64,000 nucleotides of DNA from positions 186,001 through 250,000 of the forward strand of contig JAJFJD010000001.1 in NCBI GenBank assembly GCA_021774335.1. The letters are read 5' to 3'. A program made the position numbers and the translations under genes. Each line of letters opens with the position of its first letter. Position 1 is the first letter of the stretch. Shown here in pieces: positions 1,114 to 37,954 of the stretch. This DNA comes from Alphaproteobacteria bacterium (GTDB lineage Bacteria > Pseudomonadota > Alphaproteobacteria > UBA8366). A model generated the notes under the pieces. It was not told the DNA's origin, made no database searches, and saw nothing but the letters and a program-made list of their open reading frames with translations.

Positions 1114-2364
1114 ATGGCACGAATGGAGGATCTGCCCGAAGGCGAACGGGAGATGCTGCGGACGATCGAACTGCCGACGTTCGAAACGACACCCTTCGTG
1201 CGCGGCGCGCCGCTGTCGAAACGCCGCGTCGCGATCGTCTCAACAGCAGCGCTGCAGAAGCGCGACGACAAGATCTTCGATATCGGCGAGAACAGCTACC
1301 GGATCATTCCGGGCGACGTCGATCCGAACGAGGTGGTTATGTCGCACGGCTCGGCGAATTTCGACCGGACCGGCTTCCAGCAGGACCTCAACATATGCTT
1401 TCCACTGGAGCGGCTGCATGAGCTTGCCGCCGAAGGCTTCATCGGGTCCGTCGCCGATTTTCATTATTCGGTCTCGGGCGCGGTCAGTCCGCAGCGCAAC
1501 GAAGAATCGGTGCGCGAGATCGCCCGTCTGATGAAGCGGGAAGCCGTTGATACGGTTCTCCTGGTCCCGATATGACCGAAATGCACGCGCGCCGTCGGCG
1601 GGCTTGCCCACTACATCGAAGACGAGGGTCTCTCGACCACGCAGATCAGCCTCGTTCGCCTTCATACCGAGAACATCCGGCCGCCGCGGGCGCTCTGGGT
1701 GCCGTTTGAACTCGGCCGTCCGCTCGGCCAACCGAACGACCGGGATTTCCAAACACGCGTGCTGAAGGCGTGCCTCGGGCTGATTGAAGCGGACTCGGGC
1801 CCGGTGCTCGAGGACTATCCCGAGGACATACCCGCCGAAGCCAAGGCCACCGCTGGGGATATGACCGGCATGGTCTGCGAGATCGAGCTGCCGGCGCCGC
1901 CGTCCGACGACAACAGCCTCACCCAGGCTCTCATCGCCGAGATTGGCCGGATGCGGCCCTGGTACGAGATGGCCGTCAACCAGCGCGGCCGCACGACCGT
2001 CGGCGTGAGCCAGCTTTCCATCGAGGACGCCGTCCGCTATCTGGTGGACTTCATCGAGGAACCGGCGACCCCGAGCCGGCGCGACGATATCAAGGCCGGC
2101 CCGCTCCTCAAGCTCGCGTGCGAAGACCTCAAGGCCTTTTACGGCGAAGCGATGTCGGCCCAGCCCGGCATGTCGTCGAGCCGCGCGGTGGAGCATTGGC
2201 TCTGGAACGAGACCGCGCTCGGGCGCGCGTTTTGGAAGTTCCGCGAAGAGAACACCGATCACCCCGACAGCTACACACGGTATCTAGCGCAGCGCACCCT
2301 GATCCCGGACCGGCAGCTCCACTTCAAGGATGCCCCGGTATTCGAGACCGATAGCTCGATGTAA
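1114..2364 (+). CDS. Selenoprotein B family protein (GrdB/PrdB-like) with in-frame UGA at codon 154
   Basis: The frame of 417 codons is broken only by TGA at 1573-1575, after the residues LLVPI, and continues as PKCTRAVGGLA. This gives a Sec-Pro-Lys-Cys redox motif in place of a stop. Protein similarity to the paralogue at 34379-35614 runs without a break on both sides of the TGA (for example FDRTGFQQDLN before it, ALWVP.ELGRP after it). The family is the glycine/sarcosine/betaine/D-proline reductase selenoprotein B group, in which the Sec residue attacks the substrate. The N-terminus of this short version resembles PrdB more than full GrdB. Start chosen for AAGGGG at 1101-1106. The actual substrate is unknown. 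No glycine-reductase partners (GrdA, GrdC, GrdD) are seen nearby. Confidence 0.9.
1570..1608 (+). promoter_or_regulatory. Candidate bacterial SECIS element
   Basis: The 39 bases starting three bases before the UGA are identical to those in the paralogue at 34838-34876 except for one silent change (GTC versus GTT). A hairpin can be drawn by eye. The left arm is GCACGCGCGCC (1583-1593), the loop GUC (1594-1596) and the right arm GGCGGGCTTGC (1597-1607), with nine pairs and two mismatches. The loop begins 19 bases after the UGA and contains a G, as bacterial SECIS elements do. This is inference from sequence; no folding energy was computed. Confidence 0.7.
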
Positions 2365-33365: not shown

Positions 33366-34245
33366 ACGCCGCGCCCGCCAGATGGAACAGCGCCAGACTC
33401 TCGTCCAGAAATATCACCGCCAGGATGGTCGCGAAGACCGGCACCAAGTGGTTATACGGGCCGGTCCGATTCGGGCCCATGATCTCCACCGCCTTATTGA
33501 AGAAGAGCAGCGCCAGTGCGGTTGGGAACAGGCCGAGATAGGTCGCCGCGGCGGCTGCCTCCCACGTGGCGGGATAGGCGCGCGCCGTTGCGGACTCCCA
33601 TGCGTAGAATGGAATCAGCGTCACGACCGCAACGAGAAGCAGCGCGCTGAGAAAGGTGAAAGGGTCGATCGACGGCGGCCGCAGCTTCACAATGACGGTG
33701 TAGAAGGACCAGCAGGCCATCGCACCGATCATCAGCAGGTCGCCCTGATTGAAGGAGAAATCGGCGAGCGCCATAACGTCGCCGCGCGTGACGATCGCCA
33801 CGACACCGCCGAGCGACGCCGCAATCCCCGCCGCCTGCCGCCAGGTCAGCCCGACCCGCAGGATCAGCATGGCGAAGATCGGCACCGTCACCGGGCAGAG
33901 CGACATCATCAACGACGCATTGACCGCTGTCGTCCCCTGCACCGCCCAATACAAAACCGCGTTGAACAATGCCGTGCCGATCACCCCGGCCGCCAGGAAC
34001 ACGCCCATATTCGCCCGGATGGCCGGCCATTGTTCGATCAATCCACGCGCGGTGAAAGGCAGCATGACGGCAAAGGCCGCCACGTTGCGCCAGAAGGCCA
34101 GGCCGATCGGCGGCAGGTCTTCATGGACCGCGCGGCCGACGACCACATTGCTGCCCCAGAACAGCCCGCATGCGAGCAGCATCAGGACGGCGAGCCCGGT
34201 TTTTTCATCCGTTTTATGGTCTGATTTTTCGGCGGAAGGCGGCAT
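33310..34245 (-). CDS. EamA/DMT-family transporter (second copy)
   Basis: 311 residues with ten hydrophobic segments: LAVLMLLACGLFWGSNVVVG first, then two EamA repeats ending with NHLVPVFATILAVIFLDESL. Asn and Pro pairs (NRTGPYNHLVPV) mark the conserved last loop. It is a membrane transporter of unknown substrate. The start at 34245 (MPPSAEK) is preferred over 34269 by position only. It is convergent with the sortase gene, overlapping its end, and divergent from the second selenoprotein gene. Confidence 0.9.
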   Translation of the reverse strand: MPPSAEKSDHKTDEKTGLAVLMLLACGLFWGSNVVVGRAVHEDLPPIGLAFWRNVAAFAVMLPFTARGLIEQWPAIRANMGVFLAAGVIGTALFNAVLYWAVQGTTAVNASLMMSLCPVTVPIFAMLILRVGLTWRQAAGIAASLGGVVAIVTRGDVMALADFSFNQGDLLMIGAMACWSFYTVIVKLRPPSIDPFTFLSALLLVAVVTLIPFYAWESATARAYPATWEAAAAATYLGLFPTALALLFFNKAVEIMGPNRTGPYNHLVPVFATILAVIFLDESLALFHLAGAAFIAVGLYLATAPGPARRA

Positions 34246-34378
34246 GGCCGCACACCCTATAGGCCGCATCCGGTCGCGGCAATCGATGAAGGCTTCGGGA
34301 GTTGTGAATTGCCATCCCGAAGGCCGCCCGTCATACTTGAGCTTCGTTTCCCATCCGACTCACATCACGGATATCCCC

Positions 34379-35614
34379 ATGGCACGGCTCGAAGACATCC
34401 CGCTCGGCGAGCGCAAGATGATGGAAGAACTCGATTGCTCCGGCTTCGAGGATCGACGCCCCTGGGTGACCGGCAAGCCGCTTAACGAGCGCCGGGTCGC
34501 ACTGATCTCGACGGCGGCACTGAACCTGCGCAGCGATGCAGTGTTTCAGCGGAACGCTACCGATTTCCGGGTGATCCCCGGCAATGTGGACCCGGGCGAC
34601 GTGGTGATGAGCCATGTCTCGGTCAATTTCGACCGCACCGGCTTCCAGCAAGACCTAAATGTCTGTTTCCCGCTGCAGCGGCTGCACGAGCTGGCGGACG
34701 AAGGCGTGATCGGATCGGTTTCCAATTTCCATTTTTCGGTCTCGGGGGCGCCGCACCCAAGCGACCTGGAAGACTCGGCCCGCGCCATTGCACAGACGAT
34801 GAAGGCCGACGCGGTCGATACCGTCCTGCTGGTTCCCATATGACCGAAATGCACGCGCGCCGTTGGCGGGCTTGCCGTTATTTTCGAAGAAGAAGGGCTG
34901 GCGACGACACAGATCAGTCTGATCCGGATTCATTCCGAACGGACCACCCCGCCGCGCGCGTTGTGGGTGCCCTATGAGTTGGGCCGCCCGATCGGCATAC
35001 CCAACGACGCCGAGTTCCAGAAGAACGTGATCAAGGCCGCCTTCGACCTGCTCGACGCGGAGTCCGGCCCGGTGCTGGTGGATTATCCGGTGGAGATTCC
35101 CCAAGACGCCGCCGCGCTGGACGAAGACGCGATGACCGGCATGGCCTGCCCGATCGACCTGCCGGCGTTACCGGACGAAACGGCGCCGACCAGCGAGGTC
35201 GGCAAGGCCTTGATGACCGAGATCGCGTCGCTGGCACCCTGGTACGACTTGGCGGTCACGACGCGCGGCCGCACGACGGTCGGCCCGAGCGGCCTGTCCA
35301 TCGATGTCGCCGCGAAATATGTCGCCGCCTTCCTGGACGACCAGGCCGCACCCTGCCCGCGCGACGATATGCCGGTCGCCCGTGTGCTGAAGCTCGCCTA
35401 CGAGGACCTCAAAGCCTATTACGGCGAAGCGATCACCGCGCAGCCGGGCTATTCGACGAGCAAGCAGGTCGAAGACTGGATGTTCAACGAAACGGTCTTC
35501 GGCAAAGCGCTCTGGCGGCTCCGCACGCTCTGCCTCGAAAATGAGGACGAGTATTTCCACTATCTCGGCACGAACTCAATCGTCCCCGACCGGCAGATCA
35601 ACCCGCCAAGCTGA
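34379..35614 (+). CDS. Selenoprotein B family protein (GrdB/PrdB-like), second copy, in-frame UGA at codon 155
   Basis: A frame of 412 codons with a single TGA at 34841-34843, in the context LLVPI-Sec-PKCTRAVGGLA. It is a close paralogue of the gene at 1114-2364: both begin MAR-x-EDLP/IP.GER and share YGEA and NPxxP-like segments. The second half holds ALWVPYELGRPIGIPN and TTRGRTTVGPSGLS. Family knowledge: Sec-containing reductases attack the substrate to give a selenoether, and the -x-x-Cys partner releases it. It diverges from the DMT gene and is followed by mscL. The thioredoxin-domain gene lies less than 1 kb downstream and could be its electron donor. Confidence 0.9.
34838..34876 (+). 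promoter_or_regulatory. Candidate bacterial SECIS element, second copy
   Basis: Identical to 1570-1608 at 38 of 39 positions; the one change (C to T in a Val codon) falls in the predicted loop. The stem pairs GCACGCGCGCC (34851-34861) with GGCGGGCTTGC (34865-34875) around GUU. A change confined to the loop with an untouched stem favours RNA-level constraint. Confidence 0.7.
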
Positions 35615-35814: not shown

Positions 35815-36258
35815 ATGCTAAAGGAATTCAAAGAGTTCGCGATGCGCGGCAATGTCATGGACATGGCCGTCGGCATCATTATCGGGGCGGCGTTCGGTAA
35901 GATCATCTCGTCCTTCGTTAAAGACATCATCATGCCGCCCATCGGGATGCTTATGGGCAACGTCGATTTCAGCAGCCTGTTCGTCAATCTATCCGGCAAG
36001 GAATTCGCCACCCTCGCCGCAGCGCAAAAGGCCGGCGCCGCGACGATCAACTACGGCCTCTTCATCAACACGGTGCTTGATTTCGTCATCGTCGCCTTTG
36101 CCATCTTCATGGTGATCCGGACGATGAATAAGCTAAAGCGCGAAGAAGAAGTCGCGCCGGCGGATCCGACCGACAAGGATTGTCCGCAGTGCCTGTCGAA
36201 AATTCCGCTCAAAGCGACACGCTGCGCGCATTGCACGTCGGAAGTTCCGGCAACGTAA
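35815..36258 (+). CDS. mscL: Large-conductance mechanosensitive channel MscL with C-terminal zinc ribbon
   Basis: 147 residues. Residues 1-105 are a standard Msc[21 protein letters not shown], first helix [19 protein letters not shown], and second helix [20 protein letters not shown]. The tail is unusual: [24 protein letters not shown] carries two C-x-x-C pairs spaced as in a zinc ribbon, replacing the usual short helical bundle end. MscL opens under membrane tension and protects from osmotic downshock. It is preceded by about 200 bases of non-coding DNA and followed by a perfect terminator. Confidence 0.95.
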
Positions 36259-36466: not shown

Positions 36467-37954
36467 ATGCCTTCCAATATCCTACCGACCGACGGGCTGG
36501 CCGTATTCGTCAAGGCCGAGTGCGAAACCTGCGCGATGATCGCACCGTTGATCGCGGCACTGGCCCAATCAGATCTCGACATTTCGGTAATCACTCAGGA
36601 CGATCCGGCGTTCCCACCCGATGTCGATGCAGTGCATGACGGCACGCTCGAGCATTCCTTTCACGCCGATATCGAGATCGTGCCGACGATCATCCGGTTC
36701 CGGGACGGCGTCGAGACCGGCCGCACCTTTGGTTGGCACCGCGAAGAGTGGCACAATCTGACCGGACGGACGGACCTCGGGGCGGACCTACCGGACTCCC
36801 GTCCCGGCTGCGGGTCGCGCACCCATGACGTCGGCGCCTATGAAACGCTGGTCGCCCGGTTCGGCGATACCGGCATCGAGGCCCGCGAGGTTACGCTCGG
36901 CGAATGGGATGACGAGATCGAGGCCTGCTTCGATCGGGGCTGGTCCGACGGCCTGCCGGTGGTGCCACCCACCGATGCGCGCGTCCTGCGCATGCTAAGC
37001 GGCACGGCACGCGCACCCGATGAGGTGATCGGCGATGTACCGCCGAACCTGTTGTCCATCACGGTCGAGAAGGTCGCCATCAACGCGGTGATGGCCGGGT
37101 GCCGCCCGGAATACATGCCGGTCGTGCTGACCGCCCTCGAAGCCGCGCTCGACCCCTACGCGACGATGCACGGCGTGCTCTGTACGACCTGTTTTTCGTC
37201 GCCGATCCTGATCGTCAACGGGCCGATCGCTCGCAAGATCGGCATGAACTCCGGCATGAACTGCCTCGGTCAGGGCAATCGCGCCAACGCCACAATCGGC
37301 CGAGCGCTGCAACTCATCATCCGCAATTTCGGCGGTGGCGTTCCCGGCGAGATGGACCGCGCCGTGCTCGGCGGCCCCGGCAAATACACCTTCTGTTTCG
37401 CGGAGAAAGAAGACGATCCCACATGGACGCCACTCAATGTCGCGCGCGGCCACGCACCGGGCACGAGCACGGTGACGCTGTTCCAGGGCGACGGCGTCCA
37501 GGGATTCGTCGATCAACGGTCGCGGACGCCGGAAGCGCTGGTCCAATCGCTTTCCCGCTCCTTGATGGCCGTGGGAAATTGGAAGCTTTGTGAGTTCACC
37601 AACGCCATGCTGGTGTTGTCGCCGGAACATTACGCCACCTTCCGCGACGCCGGCTGGAACCGCGACAGGATCACCGGGGCGTTGCATGACACGCTGCGCC
37701 GCCCGGGTACGGACGTCATCCAGGGCGCGCACGGGATCGGCGAAGGCGTCGACCCGAAACGGGCAAACGAGATGGTCGGCAAATTCTGGCCCGAGGGCCT
37801 GTTGATCGTTCAAGCGGGCGGCCAAGCCGGACTGTTCTCGGCGATTTGCGCCGGCTGGACCGGGGGCCGTTTCCGGGACGACTCGCAGACGGTGACCAAG
37901 GAGATCGTCGTCAAATCGGCGCTTACGCCGGCGCCAGCGCAGCGGGTTTGCTGA
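36467..37954 (+). CDS. Thioredoxin-domain protein with large conserved C-terminal domain
   Basis: 495 residues. The N-terminal 110 residues look like a thioredoxin fold with the redox pair Cys-Glu-Thr-Cys (FVKAECETCAMIAP) and IEIVPTIIRFRDGVE. The remaining 380 residues (WSDGLPVVPPTDARVLRML, MHGVLCTTCFSSPILIVNGP, GMNSGMNCLGQGNRANATIG) form a domain I recall from bacterial genomes that also encode selenoprotein B family proteins. I recall no biochemical function. It may transfer electrons to the Sec proteins or process a related substrate. Start chosen for AAGGGCGAG. The 3' end overlaps the convergent cupin gene by 32 bases. Confidence 0.75.
   Translation: MPSNILPTDGLAVFVKAECETCAMIAPLIAALAQSDLDISVITQDDPAFPPDVDAVHDGTLEHSFHADIEIVPTIIRFRDGVETGRTFGWHREEWHNLTGRTDLGADLPDSRPGCGSRTHDVGAYETLVARFGDTGIEAREVTLGEWDDEIEACFDRGWSDGLPVVPPTDARVLRMLSGTARAPDEVIGDVPPNLLSITVEKVAINAVMAGCRPEYMPVVLTALEAALDPYATMHGVLCTTCFSSPILIVNGPIARKIGMNSGMNCLGQGNRANATIGRALQLIIRNFGGGVPGEMDRAVLGGPGKYTFCFAEKEDDPTWTPLNVARGHAPGTSTVTLFQGDGVQGFVDQRSRTPEALVQSLSRSLMAVGNWKLCEFTNAMLVLSPEHYATFRDAGWNRDRITGALHDTLRRPGTDVIQGAHGIGEGVDPKRANEMVGKFWPEGLLIVQAGGQAGLFSAICAGWTGGRFRDDSQTVTKEIVVKSALTPAPAQRVC

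What the first reader, a model, noticed from the sequence alone, without database searches (positions are those of the whole stretch)
34379..35614. A second, diverged selenoprotein B family paralogue
The same layout recurs 33 kb away with a TGA in the same context. Retention of two Sec genes that differ at many residues argues for different substrates, not simple redundancy.
Basis: partly seen in the sequence, partly recalled or inferred. Interest (0 to 1): 0.55.

Follow-up and report, generated by a model that had tools for sequence, protein, structure and literature searches.

The report
One of seven related selenocysteine genes
This is an intact, conserved selenocysteine-containing enzyme gene, one of seven related ones in this bacterium, and its two-part build and its habit of sitting beside the selenocysteine machinery in other species make it a useful entry point to a large, uncharacterised group of selenium enzymes.

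Summary
Window 34379-35614 (+) is an intact 411-residue gene with one in-frame TGA (codon 155, UPKC), 57% identical to the copy at 1114-2361. The TGA is selenocysteine: 54 of 55 long homologues keep it, three others have cysteine there, a covarying hairpin sits at a fixed place 3' of it, the genome has SelA, SelB and tRNA-Sec, and across 385 genomes TGA copies track SelB. But it is not simply "a second paralogue": the genome holds seven relatives (four long, three short), each with one TGA. The focal gene belongs to an old orthologous group under purifying selection (dN/dS 0.064); it is the other copy that is a broken remnant in the sister genome. "Different substrates" is plausible, not shown: the residues around selenocysteine are identical in the two copies, and divergence is higher in a C-terminal helical domain without Pfam, NCBIfam or PDB match. 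In 12 of 28 genomes the long gene lies within 15 kb of selB. Most likely a GrdB/PrdB-type selenol reductase subunit re-reduced by a thioredoxin-like protein; it fails the cut-offs for GrdB and PrdB proper.

The parts
34379..35614 (+). Focal long-form GrdB/PrdB-like selenoprotein gene, 411 aa, Sec at codon 155
   Evidence: PF07355 24.1 bits against a cut-off of 22
34841..34843 (+). In-frame TGA = selenocysteine codon (U155 of UPKC)
   Evidence: 54 of 55 long homologues U, 1 R; Cys in three homologues of other genomes
34851..34875 (+). SECIS-like hairpin inside the coding sequence, apical loop starting 19 nt after the TGA
   Evidence: loop at +18 or +19 in 42 of 56 long copies against mean 15.3 (max 25) under synonymous resampling, 0 of 200 reach it; pair counts; codon freezing
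34850..34852 (+). Codon for Cys158, resolving thiol of UxxC
   Evidence: C in 55 of 55 long copies
35147..35149 (+). Codon for Cys257, invariant third thiol in the poorly modelled linker
   Evidence: C in 55 of 55 long copies; pLDDT below 50 at 239-265
35162..35611 (+). C-terminal helical domain (residues 262-411), absent from the shorter relatives
   Evidence: AlphaFold pLDDT 90.9, pTM 0.86; no PDB match at E<=0.001, best VIA Z 4.7; no Pfam or NCBIfam match to this part; long and short forms align only over about 220 columns
1114..2364 (+). The other long-form copy in the window (P0002), 416 aa, Sec at codon 154 (TGA 1573-1575)
36467..37954 (+). Candidate electron-donor partner: protein with an N-terminal CxxC (CETC) segment, read here as thioredoxin-like, plus a conserved domain of unknown function
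   Evidence: starts 81 bp after the stop of the focal orthologue in the sister genome (L034); a relative lies near a long copy in G380; no Pfam or NCBIfam match; thioredoxin-like reading and donor role inferred
35815..36258 (+). mscL gene between focal gene and partner in this genome, not in the 81 bp gap of the sister genome; not part of the system
   Evidence: NCBIfam MscL models over cut-off, Pfam MscL

Best explanation
The gene encodes a working selenoprotein: UGA 155 is read as selenocysteine by the host's SelA/SelB/tRNA-Sec with the help of a hairpin inside the coding sequence (strong sequence evidence, no protein data). It is a long-form member of the GrdB/PrdB superfamily: a catalytic half of alternating strands and helices with Sec at the start of a helix (U155-x-x-C158), a linker with an invariant Cys257, and a C-terminal helical domain. 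Proposed mechanism (inferred from the GrdB/PrdB relatives): the Sec selenolate attacks and reductively cleaves a small substrate; U155 and C158 close to a selenenylsulfide; a thiol relay (perhaps C257) and a thioredoxin-like protein re-reduce it. The paralogues are old and separately maintained. The most likely reason is a shared catalytic half combined with different C-terminal (substrate or partner) domains, much as GrdB, GrdF and GrdH serve different substrates (recalled), but substrate difference is inference.
For: Sec: 54 of 55 long copies TGA, 1 CGA; three Cys homologues CPNCTR. Hairpin in fixed register in 42 of 56 long and 22 of 22 short copies; 0 of 200 synonymous resamplings reach either. 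Short-form stem 100% paired with 9 cells changed on both sides, 0 of 500 shuffles; long-form stem 82.1% paired, 12 such cells, 0 of 500. SelA 598.7 and SelB 454 bits, over cut-off; tRNA-Sec 75.7 bits. Of 35 genomes with TGA-bearing matches 32 have SelB over cut-off; of 8 genomes with only TGA-less matches, 0 (Fisher 1e-6). Long copy within 15 kb of selB in 12 of 28 genomes. Selection: dN/dS 0.064 focal, 0.070-0.150 for the five other own copies compared with G001. Superfamily: TIGR04483 (PrdB) E 4e-25 over residues 32-225; long-short hhalign probability 100. Divergence: 45% identity in the C-terminal part against 57% overall.
Against: Folding energy 3' of the TGA alone is unremarkable for the focal gene (z -1.0, p 0.16). 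In the covariation tests two of the five measures did not beat the shuffles: number of long-form pairs changed on both sides 334 of 500 and further pair types 250 of 500; short form 19 of 500 and 500 of 500; and the rows are related. Two genomes with TGA-bearing matches have no SelB over cut-off (G304, G353) and one only a partial one (G377); where each TGA lies was not checked one by one. No substrate, product or conserved operon: neighbours differ between loci, and the tandem pair on C55 sits between a murJ gene and a class I (Trp/Tyr-type) tRNA synthetase gene. The partner adjoins the focal gene only in this genus and, separately, lies near a long copy in G380. The full-length fold is weak (pLDDT 70.7, pTM 0.53). 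No fixed differences near Sec between the two clades.
Confidence: 0.6

Rival explanations
1. Dosage or redundancy: the long copies catalyse the same reaction and are kept for amount, regulation or chance, not for different substrates.
For: 22 residues around Sec identical in the two window copies; sister genome G001 lost the P0002 copy, leaving a relic; the number of matches varies from 1 to 10 among the 29 relatives that have any.
Against: The copies fall in separate clades found across families and the long ones are 44-57% identical to the focal one within one genome, under purifying selection; recent dosage duplicates would be nearly identical.
Confidence: 0.25
2. General antioxidant thiol/selenol oxidoreductase (peroxide or disulfide reduction) rather than a substrate-cleaving reductase subunit.
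For: UxxC is a thiol-oxidoreductase motif; the GOS survey marks PrdB selenoproteins among homologues of thiol-based oxidoreductases or Trx-like fold proteins (PMC2398784, passages read). GrdA and GrdE/PrdA models found nothing in this genome, without a working control.
Against: The nearest characterised families are substrate-specific reductase subunits (their biochemistry passages and recall); 63 positions at or above 96% conservation in 55 long copies, several polar and away from UxxC (D85, R86, R183, R193, R203), fit a specific pocket (reading inferred).
Confidence: 0.2
3. The TGA is a real stop and the gene is two reading frames or a pseudogene.
For: A table-11 ORF listing shows two separate ORFs (33749-34843 and 34961-35614).
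Against: Conserved TGA, Cys homologues, purifying selection over the whole frame, covarying hairpin in fixed register, linkage to selB.
Confidence: 0.02
4. The two window copies are xenologues: P0002 arrived by horizontal transfer while the focal gene is the resident copy.
For: P0002 is 83% identical to the copy in G028 of another family, against 72-76% for focal orthologues outside the genus; the P0002 clade includes MAGs labelled Chloroflexota.
Against: The relic in G001 at the corresponding place suggests the P0002 copy was there in the genus ancestor; dS to G028 is still 0.99, so no recent transfer; MAG labels can be wrong.
Confidence: 0.3

Closest known systems
D-proline reductase PrdB (TIGR04483)
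   Same: Best NCBIfam match (88.6 bits, E 4e-25) over residues 32-225, with the Sec UxxC motif inside the matched part
   Different: Far below the curated cut-off of 300; has an extra C-terminal domain; no GrdE/PrdA-type proprotein found in the genome (uncontrolled)
GrdB / GrdF / GrdH of glycine, sarcosine and betaine reductase (PF07355, TIGR01917, TIGR01918, NF040794, NF040795)
   Same: Pfam GRDB over cut-off (24.1 against 22); Sec in a UxxC motif as listed for GrdB (PMC13188914, passages)
   Different: Only profile positions 273-345 of 347 match; below all NCBIfam cut-offs (34.2 against 65.45 for TIGR01918); no GrdA match in the genome (uncontrolled)
'Proline reductase PrdB' selenoproteins of the Global Ocean Sampling survey (PMC2398784)
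   Same: Same Pfam (pfam07355) and UxxC; 235 Sec and 110 Cys copies listed there, so the wider group is known from sequence
   Different: The passages I read do not speak of long and short forms, a C-terminal domain, many copies per genome or linkage to selB; the rest of the paper was not read
UGSC family (seleno)protein NF041046
   Same: Also a Sec UxxC protein, in the same 22 of 41 genomes that hold TGA-bearing GrdB/PrdB-like matches, mostly in several copies
   Different: No significant profile similarity to the long form (hhalign probability 2) and little to the short form (12)

Membership tests
Selenoprotein (bacterial) | In-frame UGA conserved, with Cys in some homologues | tested here: met
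   54 of 55 long copies U; Cys in G178, G388, G184
Selenoprotein (bacterial) | SECIS hairpin just 3' of UGA | tested here: met
   energy alone not significant for the focal gene
Selenoprotein (bacterial) | SelA, SelB and tRNA-Sec in the genome | tested here: met
Selenoprotein (bacterial) | SelD in the genome | not tested
   not searched for in the own genome
Selenoprotein (bacterial) | Selenium detected in the protein | not testable with these tools
   needs 75Se labelling or mass spectrometry
Pfam GRDB (PF07355) | Score over the gathering cut-off | tested here: met
   24.1 against 22 bits
Glycine reductase GrdB (TIGR01917 and TIGR01918) | Curated cut-offs | tested here: not met
   23.8 against 602.2; 34.2 against 65.45
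Glycine reductase GrdB | Companion GrdA and GrdE in the genome | tested here: inconclusive
   no match in own genome for PF04723 and PF09338, but no control genome rang either
D-proline reductase PrdB (TIGR04483) | Curated cut-off 300 bits | tested here: not met
   88.6 bits
D-proline reductase PrdB | PrdA partner in the genome | tested here: inconclusive
   searched only through PF09338, no control rang
D-proline reductase PrdB | D-proline reductase activity | not testable with these tools
   needs assay

The most novel reading that the evidence does not exclude
A so far undescribed, expanded branch of GrdB/PrdB-derived selenoenzymes in Alphaproteobacteria that works without the GrdA/pyruvoyl partners, has taken on its own C-terminal helical domain and a third invariant thiol, and in several lineages is a founding client that keeps and travels with the selenocysteine machinery (selA-selB-selD islands), each paralogue serving a different small substrate.
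Probability: 0.3. Interest if true: 0.7.

Novelty: new variant of a known kind. Interest (0 to 1): 0.45.

Why it matters
The GOS survey counts PrdB and UGSC selenoproteins among its most abundant families (PMC2398784, passages read), and a 2026 review says of a list of predicted selenoproteins, UGSC among them, that their functions remain largely uncharacterised (PMC13188914, passages read). A genome with seven GrdB/PrdB-like Sec genes, and the finding that the long form sits by selB in 12 of 28 genomes, give a concrete handle: genomes with a single long copy inside a sel island let one ask what this enzyme does and whether selenocysteine decoding is kept for it.

Tried and rejected
Stop-codon or pseudogene reading: rejected. 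Folding-energy test with synonymous shuffles: not significant for the focal gene (z -1.0, p 0.16) and weak for the 57 long rows (mean z -0.72), stronger for 22 short rows (mean z -1.53); control windows inside the same genes were often as low (13 of 45 for the focal gene). One of those 57 rows was a wrong segment (second piece of L067), also present and dropped. Full-length AlphaFold model with 15 sequences: pLDDT 70.7, pTM 0.53; Foldseek 0 PDB matches at E<=0.001; VIA best Z 9.1 (rmsd 5.9, 155 residues) to LacI-type folds, with Rossmann-type enzymes below, read only as a common arrangement. C-terminal domain alone: good model but no PDB match at E<=0.001, best VIA Z 4.7, which does not prove a new fold. 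Sequence search of solved structures: 0 matches at E<=1. GrdA and GrdE/PrdA searches: nothing found but uncontrolled. UGSC as a remote homologue of the long form: not supported by hhalign. Shared operon: among 85 neighbour proteins (chosen by hand from the 134 listed) no Pfam family matches more than 4; those with 4 are AIRS and nucleotide-disulfide-reductase domains, largely SelD-type proteins. The partner is beside long copies only in G000, G001 and G380; for the other relatives I compared coordinates by eye and saw distances of about 2-10 kb in G003, G014 and G035, without a statistic. Within the 54 SelB genomes the GrdB/PrdB-like and partner families co-occur somewhat more than expected (25 both, 7 and 9 singly, 13 neither; Fisher p 0.009), not corrected for kinship. 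The selB-linkage probability (binomial 4e-18) also ignores kinship; the 12 genomes fall in 7 families, and one long copy per genome was used.

Rows dropped before counts: searches left out the partial rows L002, L046, L065, L068, two L095 fragments and the second L067 piece; one search used only three short copies, as outgroup.

Full report
What is there. Window 34379-35614 (+) is an open frame of 411 codons with one in-frame TGA at codon 155 and a TGA stop. The other copy, 1114-2361 plus stop, has its TGA at codon 154. They are 57% identical, and 22 residues around the TGA codon are the same in both.

It is one of seven. A whole-genome search with either protein finds seven places in the window's own assembly, each with exactly one TGA: two in the window, a tandem pair on contig 55 (44-47% identical to the focal protein) and three shorter relatives on contigs 31, 36 and 49 (30-32% over the shared half). 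The assembly has 63 contigs, 96.7% completeness and 7.0% contamination, so stray contigs are possible; but the sister genome G001 has orthologues of six of the seven, which argues against contamination. Of 98 genomes searched (the own one included) 29 have matches, up to ten per genome.

TGA is selenocysteine. In 55 long and 26 short copies the position is TGA in 54 of 55 and 22 of 26; the rest are one CGA (long) and four Cys codons (short). Three long homologues from other families of the class have Cys exactly there (CPNCTR; L121-L123). The 13 codons 3' of the TGA use the same codon, given the same amino acid, more often than any of 213 (long) or 96 (short) other windows. The predicted hairpin has its loop 18-19 nt after the TGA in 42 of 56 long and 22 of 22 short copies; in 200 synonymous resamplings the means are 15.3 and 5.9 and none reaches the observed number. 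In the short form all seven pairs hold in all 21 distinct sequences, with paired changes at two positions (C-G to U-A in eight, G-C to A-U in one); in the long form 82.1% of cells pair, against 32-43% for slid controls. Against this, folding energy alone is not significant for the focal gene, and two of the five covariation measures do not beat the shuffles in the long form (334 and 250 of 500) nor clearly in the short form (19 and 500 of 500). SelA and SelB (598.7 and 454 bits, over cut-off) lie together on contig 4, 1.2 kb upstream of a tRNA-Sec gene (75.7 bits). Over 385 genomes of the class, 43 have a match to the family at E<=1e-20 and 54 have SelB over cut-off. Of 35 genomes with a TGA inside a match 32 have SelB, one has a partial SelB (G377) and two none over cut-off (G304, G353); of 8 genomes with only TGA-less matches none has it. 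I did not check the place of each of these TGAs.

It is kept. Between G000 and G001 the focal gene has dN 0.027, dS 0.427, ratio 0.064; the five other pairs give 0.070-0.150. P0002 against its G028 relative gives 0.101. In the tree of 58 proteins the focal gene sits in a nine-row clade (SH-aLRT 100) and P0002 in a six-row clade (98), both within a 19-row clade (100). The upstream block of the focal gene is conserved in L041 and L046, which have a 58-59% identical copy at the same place. So this is no decaying duplicate. P0002, by contrast, is a broken relic in G001: the upstream flank (76% identical) is followed by a 234-base piece of the gene (76%) with an in-frame TAA and no Sec codon, and no further similarity was found.

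How it is built. Residues 32-225 match the PrdB model (E 4e-25) and residues 81-152 the end of Pfam GRDB; long and short forms align over 219 columns (hhalign probability 100). The full model is weak but shows alternating strands and helices with Sec just before helix 156-171. Residues 262-411 form a confidently predicted helical domain (pLDDT 90.9, pTM 0.86) with no PDB match at E<=0.001 and no VIA match above Z 4.7; neither family library matches this part. Besides U155 and C158, Cys257 in the linker is invariant in 55 of 55 copies.

Same or different function? The clades of the two window copies differ by 14 fixed residues, none between 145 and 220, and 9 beyond residue 220; identity is 45% in the C-terminal part against 57% overall. 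If the copies differ in substrate or partner, the C-terminal half is the place to look. This is inference. By analogy (recalled), GrdB, GrdF and GrdH are separate substrate-specific subunits of related reductases.

Surroundings. In 12 of 28 genomes with both placed, the long gene lies within 15 kb of selB (0.2 to 14 kb; seven families). In G301, G144 and G249 a SelD fused to a nucleotide-disulfide-reductase domain lies beside it (TIGR00476 and TIGR03169 over cut-off; TIGR04369, the fusion 'not SelD', scores highest but stays below its own cut-off). In G380 a long copy, a UGSC selenoprotein (over cut-off), a thioredoxin-like protein, selD, selA and selB (over cut-off) lie within 9 kb. In this genus the focal gene is followed by a relative of that thioredoxin-like protein (window 36467-37951), 81 bp downstream in the sister genome and beyond an mscL gene here. 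That makes it the best candidate electron donor, but the link is local to this genus and G380, and its thioredoxin-like nature is read from a CxxC, not from a family match.

Known or new. PrdB selenoproteins are a known, abundant group in the GOS survey (PMC2398784, passages), and the 2026 review lists GrdB and PrdB families (PMC13188914, passages). Paper searches gave listings in which I saw no account of the long form with its C-terminal domain, its high copy number in Alphaproteobacteria or its linkage to selB; I read only passages of PMC13188914, PMC2398784, PMC9312934, PMC1794560 and PMC5330540, so the absence is weak. The protein passes the Pfam cut-off but not those of GrdB or PrdB, so I file it as a variant of the superfamily and not as either enzyme. 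The finding itself is solid and moderately interesting; the surprising parts are the seven-fold multiplicity and the tie to the selenocysteine machinery.

Noticed in passing
G000 contigs 25, 53, 34, 4 (two), 49; L032 12773-13360: Six UGSC-type matches in the same genome, each with one TGA, all six next to copies of the family of window 36467-37951; two of those partner copies (contigs 25 and 53) also have a TGA inside the match. With the seven focal-family genes that makes at least 15 candidate Sec genes.
   Followed up: partly
window 36467-37954: Ten matches to this protein in the own genome; family found in the same 22 of 41 relatives as UGSC and in 38 of 385 genomes of the class, 34 of them with SelB over cut-off; no Pfam or NCBIfam match. 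A large family of unknown function that tracks Sec use.
   Followed up: partly
L116 2461-2687 (G001 contig 21): Broken relic of the P0002 copy in the sister genome, with conserved flank upstream (2089-2468).
   Followed up: yes
L102, L107, L111: Short-form relatives with UPLD or CPLD in place of UPVC: the resolving cysteine is lost while Sec (or Cys) stays.
   Followed up: no
L098 (G035 contig 158): One long copy with CGA (Arg) at the Sec codon and an otherwise open frame; decay or a sequencing error.
   Followed up: no
L126 (G076 contig 4): A long copy with a TAG at a conserved Trp position of the C-terminal domain, beside selB.
   Followed up: no
L129, L130, L132: Long gene beside a SelD-type protein fused to a pyridine-nucleotide-disulfide reductase domain in three genomes.
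   Followed up: partly
L038, L040, L044, L045: Close relatives of the focal gene in MAGs labelled Betaproteobacteria and of P0002 in MAGs labelled Dehalococcoidia or Chloroflexi; transfer or mislabelled bins.
   Followed up: no
L028 8762-11207: Tandem long pair between a murJ gene and a class I (Trp/Tyr-type) tRNA synthetase gene; tandem pairs of long copies also occur in G001, G002, G006 and G008.
   Followed up: partly
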